Shown: positions 33,201-64,000 of the stretch, in pieces | How the letters are laid out: the number at the start of each line of letters is the position of its first letter | Position numbering within the stretch: position 1 is the first letter of the stretch | Origin: Hymenolepis diminuta | Lineage: Eukaryota; Platyhelminthes; Cestoda; Cyclophyllidea; Hymenolepididae | Assembly: GCA_900708905.1 (NCBI GenBank) | Contig: CAADRB010000002.1 | Span: 5,629,952-5,693,951, forward strand | Direction: 5' to 3' | DNA length: 64,000 nt | Notes under the pieces: model-generated | What the model saw: the letters and a program-made list of their open reading frames with translations, nothing else | What the model was told of the DNA's origin: nothing | Databases searched by the model: none | Position numbers and translations under genes: made by a program

Positions 33201-35660
33201 GATAATTGACAAAGTTATCAGCAAAAAAGGCGAGGGTGAAACAAACAGTCGAACTAAAGTTACCAAATACTTCAATTTAGGAGGGAAACAGGTCCATTCT
33301 TGATGGTAAATCATGCGTCATTCAGGATATGGAACGACGAATGAGTTTGAGTAGGTAAGTACGAGGCTTGTCCAATTTCCTCAAACGCCTGTAAAATGGA
33401 TTTTGTTCACTTTGGAGGGGAAAGGATTTAGTTATGTCGAAACGTACAGAAACGCCTCCTTAAACTATTCGCAAAACTTTCCAAGCATATTATGGAAAGG
33501 GTTAACAAAACTGAAATTGACTAGAGAGAAGGTACCTGGAATCACTCTTATTAGAAACTCGCATTTTATCGCTCCTCTAGTTCACGCGCAATAACTAGTA
33601 TGATTGGCCATCCACATCACCGAGTGTGCAATGATGAACATCGATCTCGTGACTTCGGACATGTAGACATGCACGTTAGTCAATGTGCTCCTTCCAATTT
33701 ATAATAATTTTTGGAATTATTGCTAATTAATTTGCAAGTTAACTTAGAAATCAAACAGGTTTTCTCACGGATTTCTTGACCTCTTCAAATGAACACTACA
33801 ATATTTAACCAAATTTCCATGTTCTCAAGAGTCCACCTCACTTTACGGAGAGGATAACTGGGTTAATTACCTACTAAAGGGCTGTATTCTCAGACGCCAT
33901 AAATTTCCAGACATTTGTTACGCTTTACTTACGTAGGAGACTATTGGAATGAAATGATTTATACTCTCCAACTCTGAAAATAAAAATAGATAAGCCATCT
34001 TTATGGTTGACCACTTTTGGTATTTGGGCACTAACATGAAGAAATGTAGAATCAGTATACTGCATTAAATTGCATAATTTGCATGTCCGTATTCTAGTAT
34101 ATGCTTTTTGACTACGTTTCGTTGTTTACGCTCCTCTGTTACATATATTTTGTGTTCATACATATTTTAACAGCTTTTCCTCCCGCATATATAAGGTGCG
34201 CTTCATTTATGACAATTCCCATCACATTCAGGACGGTATTGGCAAGTGGTTATATATTTTAAGACAGATAAAATACCTGCGAGTGTCGCAATAAAGTTAT
34301 GCGGGAGTCTGATAACTGGGGGAAATCGGTAATCAACTTAATGGAAGAAGGATGCGCCATTGATAGAACCGAGTGACACTCTGCGTGCGGTAGGTAGAAA
34401 TGATGGGGAAAATCGATGAATAACTTAATAAATCGATAGCACTGAGCAAGCCAGAAGGCATGAAGCAAAGCAAAAATCAAAACCAAGTCATATTTAACGA
34501 ACTTACCCTTCTAACGAGACTGGAGGGCTTTATGAGTTAGGAGCAGAAAAAGCTGGAAATTAGGTGGATGTAATAGCTGACAATTTAACTGGGTGCAACA
34601 TTAGAAACAAAATTAGAAGTGAGATTCAATAGTAGTCAAGCATTTATAGGACAAAAATGGTTTGAGCTCAGTCGACAGCGGAAAGTTAGAATAATTACAG
34701 AACCAATCTTATAGATGCGTCACCAGTCACGTCTGTAATTTGTGCATCCTAGCGTAGCATTGTCAAATCCATTAATGATGTCAGTGTACTGATATTCATG
34801 CTATGAGCTCTGATATGTTAAAATCATTTCAGCTCGTAGCATCCTGCTAATATGTTAATTACTGGAAATAAATGTTTGTAAAATGCAGATCTCAGCTTAT
34901 GTTAGCTTTTAACTCAATAGCTTTGAAGATGAGAGTGGATTTATGGAATACGGGATTATCAAATTACAAACGAAATTAGATCCTCTCAGATGAAATCGGA
35001 CATCTAGTCCATTTGCGCTACGTAGCTCATGAAGTTCAATTATGATCGAATAGAGCGCTCTCAAAGATATCTCAAGGTATGAAGGTTTTAACGTCAAAGA
35101 GATACCAATCTCGAGCAGAGCTATTTACAAATCTTTGGCTTCAGGGCTGAAATATCCGACTCTTACTTCACACCTCTCCCTATTGAGAGTCATGCTCTCT
35201 CTATCGAAATCGTATTGCAAAATGGACCAAACACAATTATAAATGATATGCAATCTGAACTGGAACTTTAACTGAGTCATGTACCTTGCATACATGTCAT
35301 TTTAAAAGTAAATATTTAATAATAGTATGTTTTTTGATAGTTTCGTGGATACCTAATTAGGTATTTAAATTTAATTCTCTTTTTCTACAGTGGTCAGACT
35401 TCACGCCGGCAGAGTTGATGAATTTCCTTCGAATATTAGAGAAGGAAGAAGCCGAATATCGAAATGCAATCTACTACCAGTATGGTCTGGTTCGTCAACA
35501 GATAGAGCAACGCATGGCCCAATTAAGTGCTCAGGATCGACTGCTAGCTGCTCGCCATTCGGTTGCCACTTGCCCTCCTCCCGAACAACTGATCTGTCCT
35601 CCGTCAACCAGCGTCGCCAATGCTTCCAACAATATGCAAATGCATCACGCCAGTCTCTGA
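13862..35660 (+). CDS. RASSF: RASSF-family protein (RA and SARAH domains), whole gene, 7 exons
   Basis: Ras-association domain family scaffold. Relatives bind Ras-like GTPases through the RA domain and MST/Hippo kinases through the SARAH helix. Exons are 13862-15227, 18630-18685, 19502-20374, 24028-24221, 30602-30708, 32822-32970 and 35391-35660. Every junction is GT-AG and in phase (1,0,0,2,1,0), giving 1004 residues. Residues 1-765 are Ser/Pro/Asn-rich, with basophilic sites RRHS (75-78), RSRSF (174-178 and again 234-238) and RHSSF (201-205), and a cysteine cluster C665, C668, C675, C677. The RA domain runs about 776-905 (IRVYINLIKPV, DRLISFFLPRGG, EVIQCLLDRFHI, NKFALYEH, LPPSERPL, IVLQENENWEV). 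SARAH is about 918-960 (FTPAELMNFLRILEKEEAEY onward). The C-terminal arrangement matches RASSF1/3/5, but no C1 domain is present. The protein is much longer than human RASSF1 or RASSF5. A TGA at 13853-13855 is in frame just upstream, which supports ATG 13862 (or 13865), though a 5' exon spliced into this region cannot be ruled out. Confidence 0.92.
15228..18629 (+). other. RASSF intron 1
   Basis: 3402 bp, donor GTAGGT, acceptor TTTATAG. It carries a minus-strand SINE-like fragment at about 17085-17180. Nothing else was recognised. Confidence 0.7.
17085..17180 (-). repeat. tRNA-related SINE-like fragment
   Basis: Read on the minus strand it contains GGATCATGGGTTCAATACTC, which resembles a tRNA T-arm/B box, preceded by GTGCTTGAGTGGGAAGTCAG. 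Similar minus-strand sequence recurs near 33610-33700 and 51215-51315. It does not fold as a full tRNA by eye. Confidence 0.4.
18630..18685 (+). CDS. RASSF: RASSF exon 2 (56 bp)
   Basis: Flanked by acceptor TTTATAG and donor GTAAGT. Its 56 bases take the reading frame from phase 1 to phase 0, exactly what is needed to join exon 1 to exon 3, whose direct joining would break the frame. It encodes residues 456 (completed) to 474, reading AAQDQPGIPISSKSRNLS. It is too short to be found by open-frame length. Confidence 0.8.
19502..20374 (+). CDS. RASSF: RASSF exon 3 (cysteine cluster, acidic stretch)
   Basis: 873 bp, phase 0 at both ends, residues 475-765. It follows the acceptor TTCACAG and ends at AGTTTG before GTGAGT. 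It starts Pro/Ser/Thr-rich. Near its end it has FVCPYC...CRC (C665, C668, C675, C677), then an acidic Ser/Glu stretch and a conserved-looking block from STLDSDFIAWMRLSV to FNTNPLGLRMSL. The four cysteines could bind zinc but do not match the C1 pattern (50-odd residues with two His) of RASSF1A/5. Confidence 0.85.
20524..20796. mobile_element. TTAA-target MITE (piggyBac-like)
   Basis: The 265-bp interior (20528-20792) is bounded by perfect 15-bp terminal inverted repeats, CACTTTGACTGCGAC at 20528-20542 and its exact complement at 20778-20792. A TTAA tetranucleotide sits directly outside each end (20524-20527 and 20793-20796). TTAA duplication with short inverted repeats of this type is the mark of piggyBac-superfamily insertions. 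No transposase is encoded, so it would be non-autonomous. It lies inside RASSF intron 3. Confidence 0.8.
20823..20878. other. Assembly gap (56 N)
   Basis: Run of N bases only 26 bp beyond the right TTAA of the MITE. A repeat-induced assembly break is likely. Confidence 0.99.
22441..22500 (-). repeat. Possible short tRNA-like repeat
   Basis: The minus strand contains GTGGGTTCATCTCC, which resembles a T-arm. There is too little context to define a unit, so this is a weak call. Confidence 0.2.
24028..24221 (+). CDS. RASSF: RASSF exon 4 (start of RA domain)
   Basis: 194 bp, entering in phase 0 and leaving in phase 2, residues 766-829 plus two bases. It encodes GTIRVYINLIKPVKM and DRLISFFLPRGGSRLLQLSG, the first strands of the RA ubiquitin-like fold as in RASSF1/5. 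Between them is an Ala/Pro/Met-rich linker. Acceptor CCTTTTAG, donor GTGAGT. Confidence 0.9.
24222..30601 (+). other. RASSF intron 4 (largest)
   Basis: 6380 bp. It contains a cryptic exon candidate at 25640-25719 and a repeat fragment at about 28555-28620 (similar to 1060-1140). A GC-richer patch at about 29400-29900 looks partly coding-like on the minus strand but was not identified. The RA domain reads continuously across this intron without extra exons. Confidence 0.65.
25640..25719 (+). other. Cryptic/alternative exon candidate in intron 4
   Basis: 80 bp between acceptor CTCTTCTAG and perfect donor GTAAGT. Entering from exon 4 in phase 2 the segment is fully open, but because 80 is not a multiple of three it shifts exon 5 into a stop a few codons on (RHLLKK then stop). 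It may be chance. Confidence 0.25.
30602..30708 (+). CDS. RASSF: RASSF exon 5 (RA domain centre)
   Basis: 107 bp, acceptor TTATTTCAG, donor GTAAGT, phase 2 to phase 1, codons 830-866. It encodes STSAQEVIQCLLDRFHIQES and ANKFALYEHTLETQT, the helix and strand that follow the first two strands in RA domains. The split codon GG/T gives Gly. Confidence 0.9.
30709..32821 (+). other. RASSF intron 5
   Basis: 2113 bp. It contains a CpG-rich, CCAAT-bearing patch at 30880-31130. The rest is non-coding as far as can be seen. Confidence 0.65.
30880..31130 (+). promoter_or_regulatory. CpG-rich patch with CCAAT box in intron 5
   Basis: About 20 CpG dinucleotides in 250 bp, in sharp contrast with the AT-rich surroundings. 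It has CACCAATCAG at 30931-30940 and CRE/E-box-like pieces (TGACGCATCA, CACGTCA, GCACGT). It could be an internal promoter driving a short transcript that begins in exon 6 (in-frame ATG codons in MVMHW), or it could be a GC-richer repeat. No transcript evidence is available. Confidence 0.3.
32822..32970 (+). CDS. RASSF: RASSF exon 6 (end of RA domain)
   Basis: 149 bp, phase 1 to phase 0, residues 866 (completed) to 915. It encodes LSRKLPPSERPLSMVMHWVR and IVLQENENWEVN, corresponding to the DDEQPLRL and SFVLKEN-GEVNW parts of human RASSF1 (recalled). Acceptor TTTGTTCAG, donor GTAAGC. Confidence 0.9.
33281..33354 (+). other. Cryptic/poison exon candidate in intron 6
   Basis: 74 bp between CTTCAATTTAG and the ideal donor AG/GTAAGT. 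In the incoming frame it reads EGNRSILDGKSCVIQDMERR and MSLS without a stop. It leaves in phase 2, so exon 7 would then terminate after about ten codons (SGQTSRRQS, stop), removing SARAH. The conserved protein does not need it, since exon 6 joins exon 7 directly as in other RASSF proteins. Confidence 0.3.
33610..33700 (-). repeat. tRNA-related SINE-like fragment
   Basis: Similar to 17085-17180 in order of short blocks (CGAG/GTGTGCA, GATC-CGTGACTTC, GCAC-TTAG). Strongly diverged. Confidence 0.35.
35391..35660 (+). CDS. RASSF: RASSF exon 7 (SARAH domain, stop)
   Basis: Starts after TTTTCTACAG in phase 0 with TGG and ends with TGA. It encodes residues 916-1004. WSDFTPAELMNFLRILEKEE and the following heptad-like stretch to about residue 960 are the SARAH helix that dimerises with MST kinases. 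The last 44 residues are a Pro/Ser/Ala/Met tail. Confidence 0.93.
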   Translation, partial: WSDFTPAELMNFLRILEKEEAEYRNAIYYQYGLVRQQIEQRMAQLSAQDRLLAARHSVATCPPPEQLICPPSTSVANASNNMQMHHASL

Positions 35661-38929: not shown

Positions 38930-39445
38930 TGTTATAACGTAAAAAACTGGAGGTCTCGATAGTAATCTCACAGAACAAACCAATCTCGAAAACTCAGTAA
39001 TATGGCAACTTAACACAGAGGCCAATAACCCAAAGCAGAACACGAGGCACCTTATGGCCAACACGCGTGTACTAACGGAAGTAAACTCAAACGGTATGAC
39101 CTTAAACAAGTAGGCATAATTGCAAAGTGTCTTCCATCAGTAGGGGAATAAAGAAGGAAAGTACAGTTTCACTTATAGAAGAAATAGTGGAATCGGAGAA
39201 AATAATAATTATTTCTTCTAGCAAGTACATTATTAGTAATATTACCAATATATTGTCAGGAGGTGGAATAGATTACTTTCAGTTCACTGGAACGAAATTC
39301 GCCGATTCATTCCATCACGCACTACATTATTGGTTATTGGTTATGAAATCTCGTCACCGCCGCAACAACTTTGTGGCTTATCAGGCAGCCAGTTCAAATC
39401 TTTATGAGGACATGTCTTCTCTCGAATTAGACACCGTCGCATAAT
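38930..39445 (+). mobile_element. 516-bp element, copy 1 (inverse of 49644-50159)
   Basis: By eye it is identical, apart from one C/T difference near 38939, to the reverse complement of 49644-50159, with no indel. It begins TGTTATAACG and ends GTCGCATAAT. A similar but diverged tail of about 35 bp continues past 39445. It contains a 105-codon open frame (39127-39444) that starts at GTG, so a protein is doubtful. Different surroundings at the two sites argue for a recently mobile sequence, perhaps a solo LTR or other non-autonomous element. No target duplication was found. Confidence 0.7.
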
Positions 39446-40480
39446 AACCCTTTTTCATCCTAATTACGTCAACTTCATTGAAGAATTTTCACACATCGGA
39501 ATACGAGGACTGCAAACATTTCCATACTCAGACACATATTGTGGGCCTTTATTTTATTTTCTGTCATTTTTTATTAAAAAATTCCTCTTACGACCACCAA
39601 GCTACGTCAATTTCTTATTCTTTTGATGCTCTTATTACCTCTAAATGCATTCACTTACAAGTTAAGCGTAAACTTGACTAAATTGTGGAACGCCTGCGAT
39701 TTCAGTTAAAGCACAATTAAAAATAAATTCAATCACCATTATTGAGAAAGTGGGAAGAAGACAAGTTTAAATGCTCAATCATGCGTCTTACTCGAACTGT
39801 ACGGTTTTCTTCGTGGTATATGAAGAGGTCTATTTTTACCAATTTCTAAGTTGCACTCAGGATAAAACCTGTTAAAGTGGAAAATGGAGATCACACGCTA
39901 AACATTGTGACATACCTCTTTGATTACGAGTGTGTGACCATTTTGGAGAGGGAAGAGTGTGGTGTATTGGTGTATGTTCCAGTCAATCTACACCAGCCGG
40001 ACTTGTTACAGAGGTGCTTTTGGACGAATCGGACCGACCAGAAGGTATCAGTCATTAATAAAGATTAAATACAGTTTTCCTAAGCTTTAAATTATGGTAG
40101 ATTAATTGTTTATACTATAAGTTGTTGGGCGTACAAACATCAAGCTCATTATTCGTATAATATAAGGTCGGTCAGCAAAATCAACCACGGTCCGAGTTTC
40201 GGAATATTGATAACATATCCAGGAAGTATCAGTGAATTCATTTTCTCCAAATGTTTAGAGGATGCTGATATAGATCAAGGTACAGACAGTTAGTGTTCAC
40301 ATTAAGGTGACGTGCAAAGAGGGAATCAGTAGAGAGGAGAAGTTTCCTACAAATTATTGGCGAAAACTCATTTGGTTATTAACTTTTAATTCTAAGTCTG
40401 AGCTTGGCTGATTAGTTAACCTAGACAAAAACCACTATCCTATTATTTTATCATGATCCATAGCACTGCATAAAATTTTA
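39446..40480. other. Intergenic, nothing recognised
   Basis: Open frames at 39478-39681 and 39877-40068 were inspected. Neither shows a domain, and the second starts at GTG. Confidence 0.5.
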
Positions 40481-45131: not shown

Positions 45132-48100
45132 ATGGAGCAGCGAAAATCCTATTCACACCCATCCAAAGAAGTTGAAGTAACTGCGGATCCAAATACGAAT
45201 ACTTCTCCAAATGCAGCAAGTTTTGATCGATTAATTAGCAAATCAATTCTGCAAGGACTCAGTCATCTTCCAAAACTTCCAGGGGACGTCAAAGAAGTTA
45301 ATGTGGATAACTTCATCTCTTTTACACCCAATATTAATGTGTCCGTGCCGCAGAAACCCCATGATTCAAACTATTCTCTCCTTAGGGCAAAAGAAGGCTC
45401 TCCTAGACATGGGCATGGAGTCTTATTGGGTGCATTGATGAGATCAATAAAGTCACTTAGAAATGAAATTGTAAACAATTCCCCGCCTTTGCCTCCCAAT
45501 CAGGGTACATTGAAGGGTCTTTTAATGAGAAATTTGTGTTTTACTGACATGCTTCTGGCAGATCAACGACGCTTAGTCAAGAGGTACTATCATCTTTGCA
45601 ATGCCACCGAAGAATATGCACCTACGACGTCTCCACCTGGAAAAGCTAGAACTGATGAGGTTCGACAGTGTGCAAAAGGAAGGAACAACACCTTAGGATC
45701 ATCAAAAAATAATGGAGTTGTGCCTAATTTAATGGGAAGGGATGGTCCGGAGACGGAAGATCCTAATGAAATTGTCCCCAAATTCAAATGTGGAGAAGAC
45801 GTGGAAATTACTCCAGCTACAAGCCCTCAGGTATCCCCTAACAAACTAAGTGCCAACCCAAGTGAATTACTTGACATCAAACTTTCCTGGTTCGCTCAAC
45901 AAAATAGGACTAAATCTGCAAACAACTCACGAATTCCTGGTGCCGATAGAATCTCTGAAGAGGCTGAAAGGGGATACGATTCTTCCTCTACCACTGACCT
46001 GGAGGTGGAGGAGGATGATAGTACTACCGGTTTATCTTCTGAACCCTCGGATATTTATTTATCAGGAGAAAGTAACACTAGCCCCGTTGATATAAACCTA
46101 CAAATGGATGGCTTGGAAATAGACCATCCCGCCTCCCCTCAACAAAATGCTCCAGTGGCGAAAAGCAATACCGCCTTAAATCATGATAGAAGCCAGCAAA
46201 AGCCATACAGCGGATCGTTTAACCCTACGGATCTTCTCAGCGAACTCAGAAGTAGATTATCTGCTGCACGAAATGCAAATAATTCTGCCAGTGACTCGTA
46301 TGTTTCGGAAATCAAGAAAATCTTGTATGCTTTAAAAAGGAATCACGCTAGGGAAGACAGCAGTGCTTCAATTTCTCCACCAAATAGAATCAAATCTTCC
46401 GATGTTTTGGAAATTGCGAGAATTTTTGCTCTTTTGTTGAAGTTTTATGGTTTAACCCCGGAGACGAAGGATATGAATGATGTTGCTAGAGAAATCAGCA
46501 GGATTTTATTATCTGAAAAATGTGAGAGCAACAGCATGCCCCCGAAACCTGCTAAAGGAATAGCTAATATTGCTATTCATGTCGAAGATCTTCGAAATCT
46601 AGTGCTCTCACCGGGAAATGGGTCAAATTCCGCAAACATACCAAACGCCAAAAGTGGAAGCAGTGAAATGAATTCTGTCGTTGTCGACCTCCATAACCGG
46701 GCTAGTCAATTCGGGAGTACCCTACCTGCTTGGTCAGGTGGAATTAATTTTGCTGGAAACAACGAGAAAACTACTGCAACCCTGAATCATCAGGAATCTG
46801 ATATGAAGTGTGTTGAACTTGCAAATCATGTTAATGACGCTAGATTTTCCCAATCAAAAGAGATTAGTCCTGCCAGCGCCACTCCGAGAATAGATGGAAA
46901 GCTTGTCGATCAATCAAAGCCACAGGCTTCCGAGAAGGCAAATTTAAATAAGGGAAATGTCATTTCTGCTACTTCTGAACTCCTCGACAGAAATTTTTCA
47001 TCTGAACCGGGCAGGAATAGCCCAAACACTAATCCAAACACTCAGAAATCTGATGTTGAAATAGGTAATAATGCATATTCAATTAACGATCTTTACGAAT
47101 TGTTCCATTTTCTAGGTAATGAAACGGATTTAGGTAGATCCTCACATGCCTCACCTATCAATAGAGACTCCACTAAAAATGCGGAATTGCATGATGATTC
47201 TGCTTCTGAATCCAATTCCAGAGGACGCGAGAAGAAAGCTGACGCCACGAGGTCTCAAGAACCTGAGGTCGCAAGTCATGGTAGTGAACACAGAGTTACT
47301 CAAGGAGGTGTACCGAATCTCACTGTTGTCTTAGATGATTCCTCTTCTATAAATTCGGACCCGGAGTCAATGTCCTCTTTCTCCACGGATACGTTTGACT
47401 TTGCTGAGGTCAGTAGCAGTGGTGATGATAGGCTGAGTCCTGCCTCTGTATCAGGTGTTCCTGACATCGATGGTAACCTGAATTCTTCAGTGAAAACGTT
47501 CTGTGCCAACGTTGTAAATTTGGAGGAGAATGGTTCTGCTAACTTCACCCCCAAATGCAATTCTGTACAAATCGAGAATAACGCTGGGAGCCTTCAGGAA
47601 CAGGAGACAATTAGCACTTGCAATCAAGGGCATGAAGCAGATGCCGCCGGCGCTTTAGTAAACGAGGACGTCTTTCCTTGTAGGATACCTGAGCTTGAAT
47701 GTTTTGCTGCAACTTCGAAGGTAAACTGTTTTAGAGACTTCGTTTCTCCTCTCAACTGTGGAGGGTCCGAAGATTTCGTCCTCACTTCAAATTGTCGGGA
47801 ACCTGTTACAAGGGGAGTTGACCCTGCCCATGTCTCTCTCGCTCCGGAAGATGATAAATGTTTGCTTTTTGAAGGACCCATGCACAAAGGTGTCCCAGTG
47901 ACTTCAGATTTGAACGGGTTTACAGATTATGTGTCTCCAGTTGGCAATGGAAAACCTGAATATTACACCACAACCACAAACAAACAGGAACCTGCTACAG
48001 TAGGGACAGTCAATATGGTTCATTTCAACGGATATCCGTGGATGAACAATTTGACAAACTTTGGCAAAGCTCCTTTAGCCGCCTATAGTCCACATGAAAT

Positions 48101-48881
48101 TGAGTTAGGAGCGGCCAATGCTATTTATCCAGGCCCTTTTCATTTACCGGTGAATTGGATAGCTCCAGCCTATGCTCCATTTGCTTCTGAGTACAACCGA
48201 TGCTTTTCTTATGGAGCACCTTGGCAAGAGTACCATAGAGGATATTGGGATGCAAACAATTACGCCATCAATACAATTTATCAGAAACCTGAAGTGAAGG
48301 CAGGTGTTGCCGCGAATTACAAAACTTCAATGGTTTCACCCACTGCAATACGTCGAAAATACGCCTCATGTGACTCAGGAAACGACAGGCACTTGTCTTT
48401 TGAGGTACATAACCATGATTGTTCCCGTGCAAATTCGGAACCAAACCATTTTAGTGGTATTGACGTTCTAAGGAATGATAGAAGAAGCGAGTGTTTCACA
48501 GCCACTACGAGTCATCAGGAACATATTCCAGCACATATTAACGTAGGAGATAGCAGTGGTGTTTCCCAATCTCAAACTTATGGGACTAATTCCACGCTTA
48601 ACAGCATTTCAACCCAGCAATATAGAAATGAGGTGACTCGTGCAAATCGTGCAAGTGGATTCAACAGTACTTCTTTTTCTCCAATCAATGCAAGCTCCAA
48701 GAGGCAACATGCTTTGGGTGAAGTGAACTTTGCAAATCTTACCAATGTACTCGGCCGAGTTTCCCAGAGTTCTACCGAACCTCCAAAGGCGAGCAAGTCT
48801 TCCCGAGCAGCTACGTCTCTCTCCTCCTCGCTGTATTGTGAAAATTATCCCTCGGATCCTTCACAAATGGAAACTGTCTAG
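45132..48881 (+). CDS. Uncharacterised 1249-residue Ser/Asn-rich protein, member of tandem pair (large)
   Basis: Intronless frame of 1250 codons with no recognised domain. I start it at ATG 45132 (MEQRKSYSHPSKE) because upstream in-frame codons lack ATG and because the shared motif then sits at residue 56, against 57 in the paralogue at 55033. The motif (residues 56-73) is VNVDNFISFTPNINVSVP. A second block, V451-S468 (VAREISRILLSEKCESNS), resembles M393-S410 of the paralogue. Short helical stretches occur near 130-160 (LKGLLMRNLCFTDMLLADQR) and 400-470; the rest is low complexity and acidic/Ser/Asn-rich. Residues about 844-1145 contain three degenerate copies of a unit of about 60 residues. 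No signal peptide or membrane segment was seen. It is probably nuclear or cytoplasmic, but the function is unknown. A poly(A)-like signal follows 50 bp after the stop. Confidence 0.85.
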   Translation: MEQRKSYSHPSKEVEVTADPNTNTSPNAASFDRLISKSILQGLSHLPKLPGDVKEVNVDNFISFTPNINVSVPQKPHDSNYSLLRAKEGSPRHGHGVLLGALMRSIKSLRNEIVNNSPPLPPNQGTLKGLLMRNLCFTDMLLADQRRLVKRYYHLCNATEEYAPTTSPPGKARTDEVRQCAKGRNNTLGSSKNNGVVPNLMGRDGPETEDPNEIVPKFKCGEDVEITPATSPQVSPNKLSANPSELLDIKLSWFAQQNRTKSANNSRIPGADRISEEAERGYDSSSTTDLEVEEDDSTTGLSSEPSDIYLSGESNTSPVDINLQMDGLEIDHPASPQQNAPVAKSNTALNHDRSQQKPYSGSFNPTDLLSELRSRLSAARNANNSASDSYVSEIKKILYALKRNHAREDSSASISPPNRIKSSDVLEIARIFALLLKFYGLTPETKDMNDVAREISRILLSEKCESNSMPPKPAKGIANIAIHVEDLRNLVLSPGNGSNSANIPNAKSGSSEMNSVVVDLHNRASQFGSTLPAWSGGINFAGNNEKTTATLNHQESDMKCVELANHVNDARFSQSKEISPASATPRIDGKLVDQSKPQASEKANLNKGNVISATSELLDRNFSSEPGRNSPNTNPNTQKSDVEIGNNAYSINDLYELFHFLGNETDLGRSSHASPINRDSTKNAELHDDSASESNSRGREKKADATRSQEPEVASHGSEHRVTQGGVPNLTVVLDDSSSINSDPESMSSFSTDTFDFAEVSSSGDDRLSPASVSGVPDIDGNLNSSVKTFCANVVNLEENGSANFTPKCNSVQIENNAGSLQEQETISTCNQGHEADAAGALVNEDVFPCRIPELECFAATSKVNCFRDFVSPLNCGGSEDFVLTSNCREPVTRGVDPAHVSLAPEDDKCLLFEGPMHKGVPVTSDLNGFTDYVSPVGNGKPEYYTTTTNKQEPATVGTVNMVHFNGYPWMNNLTNFGKAPLAAYSPHEIELGAANAIYPGPFHLPVNWIAPAYAPFASEYNRCFSYGAPWQEYHRGYWDANNYAINTIYQKPEVKAGVAANYKTSMVSPTAIRRKYASCDSGNDRHLSFEVHNHDCSRANSEPNHFSGIDVLRNDRRSECFTATTSHQEHIPAHINVGDSSGVSQSQTYGTNSTLNSISTQQYRNEVTRANRASGFNSTSFSPINASSKRQHALGEVNFANLTNVLGRVSQSSTEPPKASKSSRAATSLSSSLYCENYPSDPSQMETV

Positions 48882-48930
48882 ACAGTGAAGAAATGGTGTG
48901 AAGTCTGTAATGGTAGTATTAGCAGTAAGA

Positions 48931-48936
48931 ATTAAA
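48931..48936 (+). terminator. Poly(A)-like signal ATTAAA
   Basis: First ATTAAA after the stop at 48881, followed by T- and GT-rich sequence. Confidence 0.4.
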
Positions 48937-49490
48937 AGTTTTAATTGTGTTATTGATTTTGTGTTTTGATTTGAGTTATTTACTAGAGGCTAGATAATAA
49001 TAAGGGTTCATTAAGTTTGACGTAACTTTGTGTATTTTGGATGATGCTATTTCTCTGATTCAACTTTTAGTATTGTAGGAAATTTGCGTAAGGTTATATA
49101 GTCTTGATCAGTGTTTACTAAATTTTTACCGGAAAAAATGCGGTGATTGCAAATCTATTGAAGTTTAAGAAGTAGTTAGTTTTGAAGGCAAAATAATTTA
49201 GTGTTTCTAACGTATATTTGAGTAGTGGAAGACAGTAGGCTTGTTGATGGGAGTTTGGCAAATGAGGTGAGGATATATTTTTTGTGTCAAGACGGACTTA
49301 GGACACGCCCGCTCCTTGTAGGGGGTCGGAACAACGGAGAGTAAGATGAAGGAGGAGAATTGAGTAAGGGCAGTGCTTTAACATGAAGTAGGAGCTTGAG
49401 AGAAAGGGTCGGAGATATATTGAATAAATGGGTGCTAGAGATAACCTTGCTCAGTGGTCGGTATCGATTCCAGAAGTTCCTCTGGATTAT
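48937..49490. other. Intergenic, nothing recognised
   Basis: 49270-49480 is GC-richer and purine-rich on the + strand but shows no coding pattern. It leads into an R1 copy. Confidence 0.5.
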
Positions 49491-49643
49491 TATAAAATTA
49501 AAATAACTCGGAGCAGAGCAAAATATGCGCAATATTTCAATGTGGGCAAGCAACTGAAGTCGGTTAGCAGTAGGACTTATAAAGGATAAGGAGGAAGGGG
49601 GTTGGAAAAGGTAAGTTGGATGTAATTCGTATGAAAATGGGTA
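49490..49643 (+). repeat. Dispersed repeat R1, left part (interrupted copy)
   Basis: GCGCAATATTTCAATGTGGG, then GCAAGCAACTGAAGTCGGTT, continuing to GGGGGTTGGAAAAGG, after which R1 similarity stops. It resumes at about 50165 beyond the 516-bp element. Confidence 0.65.
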
Positions 49644-50159
49644 ATTATGCGACGGTGTCTAATTCGAGAGAAGACATGTCCTCATAAAGATTTGAACTGG
49701 CTGCCTGATAAGCCACAAAGTTGTTGCGGCGGTGACGAGATTTCATAACCAATAACCAATAATGTAGTGCGTGATGGAATGAATCGGCGAATTTCGTTCC
49801 AGTGAACTGAAAGTAATCTATTCCACCTCCTGACAATATATTGGTAATATTACTAATAATGTACTTGCTAGAAGAAATAATTATTATTTTCTCCGATTCC
49901 ACTATTTCTTCTATAAGTGAAACTGTACTTTCCTTCTTTATTCCCCTACTGATGGAAGACACTTTGCAATTATGCCTACTTGTTTAAGGTCATACCGTTT
50001 GAGTTTACTTCCGTTAGTACACGCGTGTTGGCCATAAGGTGCCTCGTGTTCTGCTTTGGGTTATTGGCCTCTGTGTTAAGTTGCCATATTACTGAGTTTT
50101 CGAGATTGGTTTGTTCTGTGAGATTACTATCGAGACCTCCAGTTTTTTATGTTATAACA
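49644..50159 (-). mobile_element. 516-bp element, copy 2 (inverse of 38930-39445)
   Basis: Reverse-complement twin of copy 1 with one base difference. It interrupts an R1 repeat: R1 sequence stops before it and resumes after it (TAACCTCAATTGGTGTTTGG at about 50166). This insertion is therefore younger than that R1 copy. About 25 bp of R1 consensus seem missing at the junction. Confidence 0.7.
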
Positions 50160-50164
50160 GAATC

Positions 50165-50335
50165 TAACCTCAATTGGTGTTTGGACTCGGGTTATGCGCT
50201 CTTTATTTAACGGGTAGTTTGCCATTTCACGTTCCGAAATCCAAATAGCATGATTCATTACATGAATTGCTGAAAATATTCTTGTCCGCGATATCCAATA
50301 CTTTTTGAGTGATCGTTTAATTGCGATGGTTGGTC
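50165..50335 (+). repeat. Dispersed repeat R1, right part (interrupted copy)
   Basis: CTCAATTGGTGTTTGGACTC, TTCCGAAATCC, CATGATTCATTACATGAATT and TGTCCGCGATATCCAATACT follow the R1 order seen at 11200-11340 and 37250-37400. Confidence 0.65.
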
Positions 50336-51214
50336 TACCGATTCTATTTATAAATACATAGGTGTGAAGTTCTCCCAATCCGAAATCCAATGTCACCTTG
50401 TTTCTACCACTCGCTCCTCTCCAACTTCTGCCGGTCAACTCTTCAAATCAGGTTCCCCAGCCACCTCCTTCCCCTCTCTCCCCCATTCTCTCTTTGATAA
50501 CTATCATTAAAATATTATCATTAATAAATCCTTTGCTTTTTCTCCTTATGCTGTAAATCTTTATATTTGGTGATCTACTAACAGAATTTTCCAAAACTGA
50601 ATTACCTAGATTTTTCAAGCCTTGAAAGACTTATACAATCACAGATTAAATATAGCACACTTTCGAATGTATTTTAATATAACAATAATTACTTACGTTT
50701 TGTGCCGATGGATTTAGGAAATACAGCAGAACAAACACTGTTACGCTAGGATACATATGCACGTGCGTGCACTATCTTCTTAACAGTTAGTTTTAAAAAT
50801 AAAAACATGGTGAAATAAACTAGAAAAAAAAACACATTTAACCTTGGAAACTTACTCCCCAATTTTCTCGATCTCTGGAATAAAAGTGGTTGATGTGGCA
50901 CTACCAACCGTCCCATTTAATGAACTGGTCAATCAGCACCGGACATCGTGGACATGTCTCCACCTAGTAATCTATGTGAGAAATCATAAAATCTGAGCTT
51001 TGGATCCTAAGCTATTCAGTAAGTCAATGGAGCACAACCCAAACCTGAAAATCAACTGAAGTAAAACCATTCTGATATTTTAACTTCAATTCCAAAAATA
51101 TTCTTAAACCCATCAGGAGAAGTGTTCATAACACTTGACTTGAGTAGAGGGAAGGGATCCTGGAGCCGCTACCACTTCTCTTCTTGAAAAGAATTAAAGA
51201 GAGCTGTTGATCAC

Positions 51215-51315
51215 TCATACTGCTGAGTGAGCACCAATTGGCATTGGTCTCGTGACCTCTGACTTTGGCAGACGAGCATTTTGACCACAGCACCACCGAT
51301 GCACTTAATTCCCAA
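51215..51315 (-). repeat. tRNA-related SINE-like fragment
   Basis: The minus strand contains GTCAGAGGTCACGAGACCAA, comparable with GTCAGAGGATCATGGGTTCA at 17085-17180. A related flank extends to about 51130. Confidence 0.4.
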
Positions 51316-51359
51316 AGCATTTTCAATTACCTCCTAACTACATCTTTGTGGTTGATTTA

Positions 51360-51445
51360 CTCACAACCGATTTCATTTGCTTTCCCACAATGAAAAATGG
51401 CATTTGTTTTGTCGTGTCGTTGGTTATAATGATATATTAGTCCGG
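51360..51445 (-). repeat. R1 5' end fragment, minus strand
   Basis: Reverse complement reads CATTGTGGGAAAGCAAATGA followed by AATCGGTTGTGAG, matching the R1 start (CAATGTGGGCAAGCAACTGA, then CGGTT). Confidence 0.5.
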
Positions 51446-52414
51446 AGCAATATGAAAGGATAGGTATTCCTAATTCATGGCCACTGAAAGCCACTTTAAC
51501 CGGAAAAATTCCCGCCTCTATCAACATTATCTGAATTGTAATCTAGGAAATTTGTGCTCGAGAAATGAACTCCTTCAAGCTCCAGTTTATATTTATATAT
51601 GCGTTTATTTATTATCCTTACTTAAGAGTATTACTAGGATATTAAGAGAAATAGGCAGATTTTCAACCAGTTTTGTTCTTGATTACTGCACTTGAGTTGA
51701 TGAAACTTTTAACCTACTTTGCTGCTATTGCGTCCTTTGACTTAGTAGTTTTTAAGTTCTTTAGGTACCGTAGTGACTATAGTAGATAAGTCGCAGCAAG
51801 CACTAATTTAAGGATCAAATAATACAATAATAATACGATAATACAAAACCACAGAAATAAGTAATAAACATTTAGGATTGATGGCACAGCAATGGCAAAG
51901 GTAAACACACCTAAAGCAGTGAATAGTAAGAAGTGGGGTCATATTATAGCCGTGGGAGTTTCAACTGGGTAAACGTGCAGTTCGCAGGGCATGAAAGTGG
52001 TCATTGGAACAACTTAAACATGCAGACGACGTATGCTCTATCATTTCATCGTGAATACGAACCAAATAGCTTTTTAAAGGCTTGAAATAATTGATGACAA
52101 ATACACCTCGGAAATGGCATGTCGGTAGAATAGTTTGCATGTACACCGGTGGAGATTTGGATCAATAATCTCCTGGAATGGATGATCATGTGATTAATTG
52201 AGGGACTCCATTACCTACATCGAATCTTTAGAGAATAATAAAGGTCTAGCCCACGATTTTTAGACTAGAATATCTGAAATTCAAAAAGAGAGTTAGCAAA
52301 ATTCGGCCGCTTTCTGCGATCTGCTAATTTTGCCTCTGGTTATGTTAATAGTAAAAATCGAACCAATACTTTGATTGACTATTACCCATCATGTGGTGTA
52401 CGATGACAGGTTAA

Positions 52415-53010
52415 AGACTTTTTCGTGGATGACGTTAACTTCATACATTTGAAGAGAAAGTTTCTTGGAAGATCTTTGCTTTTCAATTAAAAATTTAAAA
52501 CTAAGTTATCGGAGAAGTCTTTCCATGGGAGATTAGTTACTGTAAATAATGCTATGGAAATTCCAGTTGTAAATAGTGTATTTCTAAGTTTGCACATGAT
52601 GATTTGGTCGAGGGAATTTTGGTGAAAACTGCACAAATATTCGGCTTGAAGGAAAGTGAATGTAAAATAGTGAATCCTACGCCGAAATCGCTTCCTCTCA
52701 CTATCGATTATCAGCCTTAACGGAAAGGTGCAGCCAAAAGAAAAAGCGCCAATGTATGTACTCTGTGTCATCGAATCTTCGCAGACAAGAGGAAGACGAG
52801 AAGGTACTTGTGGATGGAATATCAGAAACACAAATATACTCTATCAGCAAGAATTATATGCAAAATTGGCTGCAAGAAATGACATGAAATTTCGTCTCCT
52901 TAATTTCTATACAAGGGCGAAGATGGTGGAAAGAAGGAACAGGTCTGACGGAACTTCGAATAGAAAATCGGTAAATCCGGAAGCTAGGGTTCTTCTGATT
53001 ACGCAGCTCT
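52415..53010 (+). pseudogene. Zinc-finger-like protein pseudogene
   Basis: Protein-like frame with a stop and a frameshift. Segments are FVDDVNFIHLKRKFLGRSLL, KTKLSEKSFHGRLVTVNNAM, then (shifted) KFAHDDLVEGILVKTAQIFG, SECKIVNPTPKSLPLTIDYQ and, after one stop, CTLCHRIFADKRKTRRYLWMEY. The last has the spacing of a C2H2 finger, CX2CX12(H)X4(H), but Tyr replaces both histidines. The codons are TAC and TAT, each one C-to-T change from a His codon. ICKIGCKK and a run with five or more stops follow. It looks like an old retrocopy of a zinc-finger gene. The parent is unknown. Confidence 0.45.
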
Positions 53011-53358
53011 AATTTCTAGTGCTCTCGTTCTCTTTTAAAACTCAGATATCTCTTCTCCATGCGTTCTTAGATATTTCATCATTACCATAAGTAACAAATT
53101 ATTTCTGCTCTGCCATAGAAAAAAAAGTAAATCGCAGGTTGCATAAAGGTTTATATTGAATGTCTATCGGCGTGAGCTCATAATTCTACTCCTAATAGCT
53201 TATAATTGAGAAAATATCTATAAGTGCAAGTCATCGTTTATAAGTACAAAAACAAACCAAAATACTAATAAAATATCTTCAAAATTCAGCTCAAACCGAT
53301 CAAACACTCTTGAATATTTCATTAGGTGTTGTTTGTGAGAACAATAACGAAGATATAT

Positions 53359-53399
53359 ACTAGAGTTGACATTAGAATTTACTTTGCGTCAACTCTAGT
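53359..53399. repeat. Perfect 12-bp inverted repeat
   Basis: ACTAGAGTTGAC at 53359-53370 and its exact complement at 53388-53399, with a 17-base loop. It could be an RNA hairpin or a relic of transposon ends. No flanking duplication was seen. Confidence 0.6.
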
Positions 53400-53694
53400 G
53401 AGGTCTGTTGTATTTATAAGTTATGTAACATCTTATCATCTGCGTTTGGAAAATAACATTGTTTAAACGGTATGAACGACCGTCCTCATTAGTATTTCAG
53501 CCAATAAGCTCTAGATATTGTGGAAAATATCTCCGGGGCAGGTAATAAAATTAGGATTTTTGACTTTTAAGCAGCGAACTATTAATTGAATAAATAATGT
53601 ACAATATGAATTCAAAAATAAAATGAAATATTCTGCATTCATATCCGATGTCTTTTCGCTCCCCTTTCCTTTAACACCCTCTGGAGTTATTCAT

Positions 53695-53790
53695 TAGTAT
53701 TCGATTTCCCACATTGAAAAATTGTGCTATTTCCTTGATGTAGACCTTGTGATAATCCAGAGCAATACATAATCTTATAAACCCCATCTT
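53695..53790 (-). repeat. R1 5' end fragment, minus strand
   Basis: Parallel to 51360-51445: TTTCCCACATTGAAAAATTG, then later TGATAATCCAGAGCAATACA against TGATATATTAGTCCGGAGCA. Confidence 0.4.
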
Positions 53791-54900
53791 CTTAGCTACT
53801 GAGATTTCAAATTAAATCCATAATACTCATATCAACATAAACGAAATTAGAACATTTAAAATAATAAAATGATTAGTTTAGATGAACATCTTTTACCTAT
53901 TAGCACAACATAATAATATAAAGAAACAAATAAATTTTGCACCTTGGTATAATTGTCTGTACTTAAAGTAATGAAACTTCAGAAATTGTCTTTCTCGTTT
54001 ATTGCATTCTTTGTCGATCTAAATTTCATTTGACATATGAAATCATTAAACATAAATAGGAACTGGTATTTATAAAAAAATTATCTTCAGTATCACTTTT
54101 CGTCACTACATTTCACGATATATCTTAATCTTAATCAGAAACGAAAATTATCTGTTATTTCCGATCAAAGGACAACATTAATTAAATAGGTTTTGCTTAA
54201 GCTATTTACCAAAATGCTCAAACATTTGAGCAGCCGAAGCGAATATTTGGGGTGTACCTGAATAGATTTCACCCACTCCGGCTTTCGCGTGCTAGTTTAT
54301 TGATTATTAATTTACCATGGCCTTGGGCAGAAATAGAATTACGCCTTGACTGAAATAATGTCTAACCGCGCAGTGATCAAACCTCCTTGTATACCAACCT
54401 GCATGTTTACATGCAATTTCTTTATAAGGAAAATTGATATGCAGGTTTAGGTCTTCAGTCCTCTTCCTATTGGATCTGAGCAAGTTTGCATTATAACAGT
54501 AGCTGCAAACTATTTTATTAACTGTAGTGTCCATTACAAATATAATATCTCCACGTAGAATTGCAAAATACCATTGGAGAATGTTTTTTGCTTAACCTAA
54601 GATAATTCTTCTCACAAGATTAAAGATTACTAGACTACAATGACCTTTCCCAAATTAGAAGTATAAAATTCGAGCAAACTCGCGGGCATAATGATAAAAC
54701 GAGGAAATGAGAGAGTATAAGAAACAAAGAGAAATTTAGAATAGGAAATTACCACTTGAATGAGCAGGAAAAATAAGCATTATTTTATCTGTATATTTTT
54801 AATTATATTAATAAATAGGATCTACGCGTACTGCTCTTCTTTTAATTTCACATTTTTAAATTGTGCTAGATAGTGAAAATTAAAAGGTTAATTTATAACA

Positions 54901-54910
54901 TGCATATTTA
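54901..54910 (+). promoter_or_regulatory. TATA-like element TGCATATTTA upstream of the 55033 gene
   Basis: Exact copy of the 10-mer at 45016-45025, here 123 bp before the ATG. Supports duplication of promoter together with gene. Confidence 0.4.
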
Positions 54911-55032
54911 GCATTCGCAATTTTTTGTTTTATCAGTTTAATTAAATTAGATTTGTGCTCAAAGCTAATCGTTCAAAGTGTTCTACTGTTATTTGAGAGC
55001 TTTTACGCGTTCAAAATTGCTTGCAATTAAAA

Positions 55033-56394
55033 ATGGGAAGGCAAACATTTCATTTATCCAGTTCATCTAATTCATCCAGTTCCACTGTCGTTGGTAATAT
55101 GCATAGAAATCAACTCTGTGCTAACACCAGTATGTCAGATATTGAGACTATTCCGGAAGAATTTGAGGAGACACCAAACGTGCCCGCAAACATCAACAGG
55201 ATCAACGTGAAAAATTTTGTTTCCTTTACACCTAATATTAATTTGTCTCTGCCAGAATGCCAATTTACAAACAGTGAGGGTACTGGAGTCATTAAGGCGC
55301 AAGAAATCCTATCGGCTGCGATGCCAGCAATGATGGAATCCATTGAACAATGCCTGCAACTTGCATCCAGATATTTAAAACCCTCTGAGTCTTCACATTT
55401 TTCCCAGGATTTATCGAGAAGCCACCAAAATGGAAAGGTTTTGGAGCCTGATAGATCGTCCAATATACAAGTAAGTTTAAGTAATGGCAATTGTAATGGT
55501 GCTGAAAAACGTCACTCTACTAAACAAATCCTTAAAAACGTTTCTGCGGGGCAGATCGGAGTTGAACCCATACAGATGAACGGCACTCATATTTTAAAAA
55601 CGGAAGATTCTTTGACGCACATGCAAAAGGTGTATGATTCTTCTGCTTTCGCCGATCAAATGAGTAAGGAAAAAAGACTACCTTCTTCTAACTGTGACAT
55701 CTCTGATAAAAAGACTGCTGATGAGGCCTGCCATGTTAACGGATGCAAAAAAATACCACCTTCTGAACTAAGTGAGAGTGAATTCCCCACTTCAATTTCT
55801 CATATTTCTATCAAGGACACAGAGAATGGTGCTAGTGAATTTAATAGAGTGAAGTGTGAGGAGGATTCAGCAACTGTAAGTCTACATGCTGCAAATATCA
55901 ACAAATATTTGACTTTTCTGCAAGAAAAATATAACACTCGCATTACTCCTCCAAATGTCAGTAGTGAAGAGACTCCTCTTAATGCGGTGACAATTAACTC
56001 ACTTGGTCAGCCATTTAACCAGTCTATAAATGAATACAAAGAAAATTCCGCTTCTCTGCCGAAAGTTTCTCTACCATTCCCCAAGGATGGTTGTCCAACA
56101 CCTCCAAAACTGACTACTAATGATTTTAAAACTTGTAGGGAAGAAAGTAAGAATTCCAATTCTCAAAAAGAGGAAATTGATGGTGCGAGGTCAATTATTT
56201 GGACAACCATGGCACAAGAACTCTGGAAAATTTTGTTTTCTGAATTATACAAATCAAATTCTGAAGAAATAGTTAAGAATTTGACAAACCAATGCAACAC
56301 AGCAAGTTGTTCTCGAGTTGTGACGCCCCCTCAAAAACCATCGCATGATGCAAATGGTTTGTTTCCTGTAAATTGTGATAAATGTGGATCTTAG
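55033..56394 (+). CDS. Uncharacterised 453-residue protein, member of tandem pair (small)
   Basis: Intronless gene in the same orientation as the 45132 gene, 6.1 kb downstream of its stop. The start at ATG 55033 (MGRQTFHLSSSSN) is chosen because upstream in-frame codons are not ATG and the motif INVKNFVSFTPNINLSLP then falls at residues 57-74, one position from its place in the paralogue. M393-S410 (MAQELWKILFSELYKSNS) matches the second shared block with about 9 of 18 identical residues. The N-terminus is a Ser run and the middle is Ser/Glu/Asn-rich without a domain. The C-terminus is cysteine-bearing (CNTASC near 420, CDKC at the end), perhaps metal-binding. No signal peptide or membrane helix was seen. 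Function unknown. The poly(A) signal is only 10 bp past the stop. Confidence 0.85.
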   Translation: MGRQTFHLSSSSNSSSSTVVGNMHRNQLCANTSMSDIETIPEEFEETPNVPANINRINVKNFVSFTPNINLSLPECQFTNSEGTGVIKAQEILSAAMPAMMESIEQCLQLASRYLKPSESSHFSQDLSRSHQNGKVLEPDRSSNIQVSLSNGNCNGAEKRHSTKQILKNVSAGQIGVEPIQMNGTHILKTEDSLTHMQKVYDSSAFADQMSKEKRLPSSNCDISDKKTADEACHVNGCKKIPPSELSESEFPTSISHISIKDTENGASEFNRVKCEEDSATVSLHAANINKYLTFLQEKYNTRITPPNVSSEETPLNAVTINSLGQPFNQSINEYKENSASLPKVSLPFPKDGCPTPPKLTTNDFKTCREESKNSNSQKEEIDGARSIIWTTMAQELWKILFSELYKSNSEEIVKNLTNQCNTASCSRVVTPPQKPSHDANGLFPVNCDKCGS

Positions 56395-56404
56395 AACTTG
56401 AATC

Positions 56405-56410
56405 AATAAA
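56405..56410 (+). terminator. Poly(A) signal AATAAA
   Basis: AATAAA begins 11 bases after the stop codon, implying a very short 3' UTR for the 55033 gene. Confidence 0.55.
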
Positions 56411-63360: not shown

Positions 63361-64000
63361 ACATGGGCTGAAAAGTCCCGAGACAAACACGGATGGTGCT
63401 AGTTTTATTGCAGTCACCGTTCTTTCAGTTAATACTAACCTTCAAAAGACAGCTGTTAAAATTTCATGATATTCTACTCATTAGTTTGTGAGTTATTGTG
63501 CTAAGAGTGACGCTACTTTTGTTGTTTTCAAAACAATGCATCGAAAACAATCTCCTGTTTTAATTTCACACTGCTTCTTGATGGGAAAAATACCGTTCAA
63601 GAGAAGCAATGGCTTGAAAAGTGTTATGGGGACTCCGCTCCATCAGAAACAACAATAAAACGTTGGTTTGCTGACTTCAAACGTGATCTTAGAGACACCG
63701 ATGATGCAGAACGCAGTGGACGTCCAAACGAGGTAGTGACACCAGAAAACATTTAAAAAATCCACAAAATCGTTTTGAATGATGGAAAAGTGAAGTTACG
63801 TGAGTTAGCTGACATCGTAAAGATATGAAAAGAGCGTGTTGGCTTCATATTGCATGAGCATTTGAATATGAGAAAGTTCCGTTCAAAGTGGGCGCCGCGT
63901 TTGCTCACTGTTGATCAAAAACGAGAACGTGTTGATGATTCTGAGTAGTGTTTGGCCATGTTTAAAGGTAACAAACAAACGGGAATTTTTGCGTCGATAT
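63361..64000 (+). mobile_element. mariner transposon, 5' part (cut by window end)
   Basis: The likely terminal inverted repeat is at the start (ACATGGGCTGAAAAGTCCCG, 63361-63380), followed by untranslated sequence and the transposase frame from about 63538. The 3' end lies outside the window, so the inverted repeat pair and TA duplication cannot be tested. Confidence 0.8.
63538..64000 (+). pseudogene. mariner transposase, broken, partial
   Basis: DDE/D transposase of the mariner family, N-terminal part. Recognisable segments are TIKRWFADFKRDLRDTDDAE, RSGRPNEVVTPENI, KLRELADIVKI, ERVGFILHEHLNMRKFRSKW and APRLLTVDQKRERVDDSE, the paired helix-turn-helix and linker typical of mariner. In-frame stops are TAA 63754-63756, TGA 63826-63828 and TAG 63946-63948, and a frameshift lies near 63975, so it cannot make transposase. 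The catalytic aspartates lie beyond the window. Confidence 0.92.

What the first reader, a model, noticed from the sequence alone, without database searches (positions are those of the whole stretch)
45132..56394. Tandem intronless gene pair sharing an NF[IV]SFTPNIN motif: candidate undescribed family
Two single-exon genes in the same orientation (1249 and 453 residues) have almost no overall similarity. Even so, they share [VI]NV[DK]NF[IV]SFTPNIN[VL]S[VL]P at residue 56 and 57 and a second block (V451-S468 against M393-S410, about 9/18 identical). An 18-residue block kept this well inside fast-diverging low-complexity protein suggests a binding motif under selection. I recognise no known family for it.
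Basis: partly seen in the sequence, partly recalled or inferred. Interest (0 to 1): 0.75.

Follow-up and report, generated by a model that had tools for sequence, protein, structure and literature searches.

The report
Tapeworm-only pair of diverged tandem genes
Two neighbouring genes of the rat tapeworm Hymenolepis diminuta look like very old duplicates whose probably unstructured proteins have drifted apart everywhere except one 18-residue stretch, perhaps a shared docking site, and the relatives we found are in close tapeworm cousins.

Summary
The two open frames are real: 45132-48881 (1249 aa) and 55033-56394 (453 aa), same strand. The window is Hymenolepis diminuta: public H. diminuta models match letter for letter apart from one short in-frame gap each. 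The shared block VNVDNFISFTPNINVSVP / INVKNFVSFTPNINLSLP is 13/18 identical, far beyond shuffles, and lies in the only stretch a profile comparison lists. The second block is 9/18 identical as stated, but 11% of shuffled pairs do as well, so it is not established. All named relatives found are hymenolepidids; no Pfam match reached its cut-off and no PDB match had E below 0.3. Both genes occur in Rodentolepis nana, so the duplication predates that split. Best reading: an ancient tandem duplication of a lineage-restricted, probably disordered adaptor that kept one docking-like motif. The partner is unknown; a relaxed calcineurin-type PxIxIT match is no better than chance. Orphan genes are common in this lineage (6455 of 12,371 H. 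microstoma models), so this is a real but modest finding.

The parts
45132..48881 (+). gene 1, 1249 aa, one open frame, Ser/Asn-rich
   Evidence: orthologues P0006, P0007, P0008
55033..56394 (+). gene 2, 453 aa, one open frame, Ser/Asn-rich
   Evidence: orthologues P0001-P0005
45297..45350 (+). shared block A in gene 1, residues 56-73 VNVDNFISFTPNINVSVP
55201..55254 (+). shared block A in gene 2, residues 57-74 INVKNFVSFTPNINLSLP
55294..55389 (+). gene 2 block B, residues 88-119, conserved among orthologues; predicted helix (very low confidence), amphipathic over 88-114
55885..55941 (+). gene 2 block C, residues 285-303 HAANINKYLTFLQEKYNTR, conserved among orthologues
55471..55554 (+). 84-nt in-frame GT..AG stretch absent from the public H. 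diminuta model of gene 2
47065..47115 (+). 51-nt in-frame GT..AG stretch absent from the public H. diminuta model of gene 1
56405..56410 (+). AATAAA just after the stop of gene 2, possible poly(A) signal
   Evidence: read in the sequence

Best explanation
An ancient tandem duplication, older than the split of H. diminuta from Rodentolepis nana, gave two genes for largely disordered, probably intracellular adaptor proteins. Both copies kept one extended linear docking motif near the N-terminus (V-x-N-F-[IV]-x-F-x-P-N-I-x-[LV]-x-[LVM]-P), followed by a helix-prone segment. The rest diverged into separate copy-specific conserved blocks. Most likely both bind the same globular partner through block A and bring different cargo to it. 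Shown: homology of block A, protein-level constraint on it, orthologues with gene-specific blocks. Inferred: that the whole genes (not only the block) are duplicates, disorder, intracellular place (no signal-peptide test was made), docking, shared partner.
For: Block A homology. Block found at only two loci in the own genome. Separate orthologues of both genes in H. weldensis and R. nana, and the copy-specific residue (K in gene 2, D in gene 1, in VxNF) in all sequences aligned. Different codons in 7 of 13 shared residues of the block. Best conserved window of gene 2 in two of the three comparisons of distant orthologues. Ser 12.7 and 13.7%, Asn 9.1% in both. AlphaFold models with no residue at pLDDT 50 or more, block A in coil, and a helix starting 11 residues (gene 2) or 17 residues (R. 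nana gene 1) after it.
Against: No partner identified. In gene 1 block A is not unusually conserved between orthologues, nor in gene 2 between H. microstoma and R. nana. AlphaFold had only 6 and 4 sequences, so low confidence may reflect the thin alignment and not disorder. No transcript data were seen for H. diminuta. Block A itself has neither helical nor strand periodicity, and of the other seven segments tested only gene 2 88-114 is clearly amphipathic (13 of 4000 shuffles). Nothing outside block A is alignable between the two genes.
Confidence: 0.55

Rival explanations
1. Block A is the last recognisable remnant of a shared ancestor and has a structural role inside each protein (for example packing on the following helix); it is not a docking site for another protein.
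For: A helix is predicted after block A in both genes, at very low confidence; four of the eight invariant positions are hydrophobic (V59, F62, F65, I69 in gene 2).
Against: Invariant N61, P67, N68 and P74 are unusual for simple core packing (inference); the following segment itself is not aligned between the genes.
Confidence: 0.25
2. Block A is a calcineurin docking motif of the PxIxIT class, with an overlapping LxVP-like tail (PNINLSLP), so the two proteins would be calcineurin scaffolds or substrates.
For: Relaxed PxIxIT pattern in 7 of 8 block sequences (8 of 8 if Cys is allowed last), LxVP-like in 6 of 8 (patterns recalled from memory). [quoted passage not shown]
Against: 13.9% of shuffled gene 1 blocks also match the relaxed pattern; the strict pattern is met by 2 of 8 only. 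The shuffle control for LxVP says nothing, because the gene 1 block holds no Leu. The reading does not explain the strictly kept NF..F before the proline.
Confidence: 0.07
3. Block A is a nuclear export signal (spacing F-x2-F-x3-I-x-[LV]).
For: 8 of 8 blocks fit the spacing (pattern recalled).
Against: 11.9% of shuffled gene 1 blocks fit too; an export signal would not need the invariant N, P and N residues (inference).
Confidence: 0.06
4. The two genes are unrelated and the block arose by convergence or was copied in by local recombination.
For: No alignable similarity outside the 38 or so residues around block A; upstream regions share only short chance-level matches.
Against: Adjacent, same strand, block at the same distance from the start (56 and 57), similarity longer (38 aligned residues) than the motif itself, different codons in 7 of 13 shared residues against recent copying.
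Confidence: 0.07

Closest known systems
Orphan ('novel') gene models of hymenolepidid tapeworms
   Same: No domain and no named relatives outside the lineage in the searches made; the H. microstoma orthologue of gene 2 is itself labelled 'expressed protein', one of the labels listed for novel models (PMC6225667, passage).
   Different: Here two adjacent orphans are recognisable as paralogues by one shared 18-residue block.
Calcineurin PxIxIT / LxVP docking motifs
   Same: PNINLS and LSLP fit relaxed patterns (patterns recalled).
   Different: PxIxIT fit not above chance; strict pattern met by 2 of 8 only; the conserved NF..F part is no part of the motif as recalled.
PAM2 (PABP-binding) motif
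   Same: FxPN with upstream Asn, as recalled.
   Different: 0 of 8 blocks match the pattern (pattern recalled).
Cytospin-A and bromodomain proteins (names attached to the R. nana proteins)
   Same: Name only.
   Different: No calponin-homology or bromodomain match in Pfam for P0005 and P0008 up to E 1. P0005 has one sub-threshold match to the BET region of bromodomain proteins (E 0.12, 12.9 bits against a cut-off of 24.5), taken as chance.

Membership tests
Tandem paralogue pair | significant sequence similarity between the neighbours | tested here: met
   38 residues, E 3e-8, profile E 4.2e-7; no other stretch above chance
Tandem paralogue pair | each copy has its own orthologues in a relative | tested here: met
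   R. nana P0005 and P0008, H. weldensis P0003 and P0007; whether they are neighbours there could not be seen
Lineage-restricted (orphan) family | no relatives outside the lineage | tested here: inconclusive
   All named hits are hymenolepidids (P0002 is unnamed); the search needs shared exact 5-residue words and similar length, one search scored a capped list, and no other tapeworm genome could be searched in six frames
Calcineurin PxIxIT proteins | P-x-I-x-[IV]-T/S core, more than chance | tested here: not met
   strict 2 of 8; relaxed 7 of 8, but 13.9% of shuffled gene 1 blocks fit (patterns recalled)
Calcineurin PxIxIT proteins | binding to calcineurin | not testable with these tools
   needs a binding assay
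PAM2 proteins | L-N-x-x-A-x-x-F-x-P pattern | tested here: not met
   0 of 8 blocks (pattern recalled)
Cytospin-A | calponin-homology domain (recalled) | tested here: not met
   no such Pfam match in P0005 up to E 1 or in gene 2 up to E 10
Cytospin-A | coiled coil (recalled) | not tested
   no coiled-coil prediction was run
Bromodomain proteins | bromodomain | tested here: not met
   no such Pfam match in P0008 up to E 1 or in gene 1 up to E 10

The most novel reading that the evidence does not exclude
Block A is a previously unnamed docking motif for a conserved tapeworm hub protein. The two fast-evolving scaffolds compete for it, and the surviving 18 residues mark a lineage-specific signalling or RNA-granule branch of hymenolepidids.
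Probability: 0.2. Interest if true: 0.5.

Novelty: new member of a known kind. Interest (0 to 1): 0.3.

Why it matters
Just over half of the H. microstoma gene models lack significant similarity in nr or a recognisable domain (6455 of 12,371; PMC6225667, passage). A pair in which two such orphans can be shown to be related by a single surviving block shows one way such genes can arise, by duplication and extreme divergence, and gives an 18-residue bait for finding their partner. RNAi and in situ hybridisation have been reported in H. diminuta (PMC6821492, passages), so it is testable.

Tried and rejected
Rejected: named domain families (Pfam up to E 10 for four ORFs of the window, and up to E 1 for five relatives: only matches below the curated cut-offs; P0001, P0002 and P0006 were not scanned); PDB sequence profiles (one hit, MIB1, E 0.32; none); the names Cytospin-A and bromodomain given to R. 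nana proteins; PAM2, RVxF, FxFP, SxIP, LxxIxE, eIF4E, LxxLL, PxDLS, EH1, FFAT and NPF patterns (0 of 8 blocks each, recalled; for several of these the shuffle control is empty because the gene 1 block lacks a needed letter; a plain [ST]P site is in 7 of 8 blocks but in 37.9% of shuffles; one further entry of that script was mistyped and is disregarded). No Rfam family at gathering score and no tRNA in the window. A fold search was not run because the models have no confident residue. Upstream regions of the two genes (1500 nt each) gave only short chance-level matches. No H. microstoma orthologue of gene 1 was found (capped list); whether it is absent or of another length is open. The source names no species for P0002. 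Rows dropped before counting: P0001 and P0006 (the H. diminuta models themselves) in the invariance counts, the motif counts and the alignment. Literature searches were seen as listings; of four papers I saw passages.

Full report
What is there. The window holds two long open frames on the + strand, 45132-48881 (1249 aa) and 55033-56394 (453 aa). The genome is 170.6 Mb in 203 contigs. A protein search with gene 2 returned 5 proteins with E <= 1 among 3235 candidates, and gene 1 returned 3 among the 7989 candidates sharing most words, a capped list. The H. diminuta entries P0001 and P0006 equal the window's proteins with 28 and 17 residues cut out. The window is therefore taken as H. diminuta.

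The shared block. Residues 56-73 of gene 1 and 57-74 of gene 2 are 13/18 identical. The ungapped score is 78, against a best of 48 in 300 shuffled pairs. BLASTP extends it to 38 residues at E 3e-8 (gene 1 37-74, gene 2 38-75). A profile comparison of the orthologue alignments gives 38 columns (gene 1 39-76, gene 2 40-77) at E 4.2e-7, probability 93%, and lists no other region. Eight positions of the block are invariant in all 8 sequences aligned (V59, N61, F62, F65, P67, N68, I69, P74 in gene 2). Of the 13 shared residues 7 use different codons, which points to selection on protein and not to recent DNA copying. Whole-protein and 94-residue searches of the own genome found the block in these two loci only.

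The second block. It lies in a region conserved among orthologues in gene 2 (386-413) and less so in gene 1, so it may be real homology, but the data do not show it.

Conservation among orthologues. In gene 2, block A is 17/18 identical with H. microstoma (whole protein 51%; 75 of 5000 column shuffles have a window as good) and 15/18 with R. nana (41%; 187 of 5000). Between H. microstoma and R. nana it is not exceptional (16/18; 2363 of 5000). In gene 1 it is 12/18 with R. nana (whole 40%; 60 of 1232 windows as good; 4986 of 5000 shuffles) and 17/18 with H. weldensis (whole 83%; 204 of 1232 windows; 5000 of 5000). Other conserved stretches exist: gene 2 at 88-119, 285-303 and 386-413; gene 1 at about 131-150, 421-440, 471-490, 1071-1105 and 1141-1160; none of those tested singly is beyond column shuffles (839 to 4180 of 5000). 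So the picture of one motif in a sea of drift is right between the two paralogues, and only partly right between species.

Structure. AlphaFold on gene 2 (6 sequences) gave mean pLDDT 29.4 with helices at 85-114, 280-301, 375-406 and 410-418, and on R. nana gene 1 (4 sequences) 25.8 with a helix before block A (19-28), several after it (75-100, 106-122, 127-143, 153-170 and shorter ones) and others between 377 and 467. No residue reaches pLDDT 50 in either. In both, block A is coil and a helix starts 11 or 17 residues after it. Thin alignments may cause the low confidence. Of nine segments tested, only gene 2 88-114 has a clearly helical hydrophobic moment (13 of 4000 shuffles); gene 1 389-405 and 447-464 are suggestive (189 and 246 of 4000); block A has neither helical nor strand periodicity in either gene.

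Motif identity. With patterns recalled from memory, block A fits the relaxed calcineurin PxIxIT pattern in 7 of 8 sequences, the strict one in 2 of 8, the LxVP-like pattern in 6 of 8 and an export-signal spacing in 8 of 8. Shuffled gene 1 blocks fit relaxed PxIxIT and the export spacing in 13.9% and 11.9% of cases, and cannot fit LxVP because they hold no Leu, so these are leads only. PAM2, RVxF and FxFP fit in 0 of 8. No paper in the library holds the strings SFTPNIN, FTPNINL or FTPNINV in its text.

Gene models. The public H. diminuta models remove 84 nt from gene 2 and 51 nt from gene 1, both in frame and both GT..AG. The frames stay open there, and relatives' proteins keep the corresponding residues (P0005 with a 4-residue gap), so these are prediction artefacts, true short introns or alternatively spliced coding stretches. 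The published H. diminuta annotation used RNA-seq (PMC6890685, passages), which speaks against simple artefacts if P0001 and P0006 come from it; I did not check that. It gives a mean of 4.4 introns per mRNA, so a single exon of this length is less usual, which does not bear on function.

Reading. An ancient tandem duplication gave two fast-evolving, probably disordered proteins that share one docking-like motif. Both copies exist in H. diminuta, H. weldensis and R. nana, so the duplication is older than these species; whether they are neighbours in the other two was not seen. Orphan genes are ordinary in this lineage: 6455 of 12,371 H. microstoma models are putatively novel (PMC6225667, passage). 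The gene 2 orthologue there is named 'expressed protein', one of the labels that paper lists; whether its RNA-seq threshold applies to that label or only to 'expressed conserved protein' is not clear from the passage. The find is real, and I met no description of it, but it is of moderate interest.

Noticed in passing
window 38930-39470 and 49619-50159: A 541-nt inverted repeat, 99% alike, brackets gene 1 with 10,148 nt between the arms. About the first 295 nt belong to a dispersed repeat (40 places scored of 939 candidates, mostly 78-82% identical); the last 245 nt were found only in the two arms, so a repeat copy with its unique flank was probably duplicated in inverted orientation.
   Followed up: partly
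L013 6535-6930 (own genome, contig C184): A truncated, decayed copy of the 3' end of gene 1 and the 50 nt after its stop, 88% identical over 410 aligned positions, with a stop in gene 1's frame and a gap; no poly(A) tail seen. dN 0.09, dS 0.13 over 87 of 88 codons, the one with the stop skipped. Over 91 residues it resembles H. weldensis gene 1 (84%) slightly more than H. diminuta gene 1 (79%).
   Followed up: partly
window 35361-35657: An exon-like frame with a SARAH domain (Nore1-SARAH, E 3.4e-9): probably the C-terminal end of a RASSF-type gene upstream of the pair, a landmark for synteny.
   Followed up: partly
window 63511-63753: A Mos1-type transposase HTH fragment (HTH_48, E 4.2e-4, 20.8 bits, below Pfam's cut-off of 24.1), a possible mariner remnant.
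   Followed up: no
window 55471-55554 and 47065-47115: In-frame GT..AG stretches cut out in the public gene models of both genes; exitron-like candidates.
   Followed up: partly
P0005 and P0008: R. nana orthologues carry database names (Cytospin-A; Bromo domain-containing protein) that no Pfam match supports; probable misnaming.
   Followed up: partly
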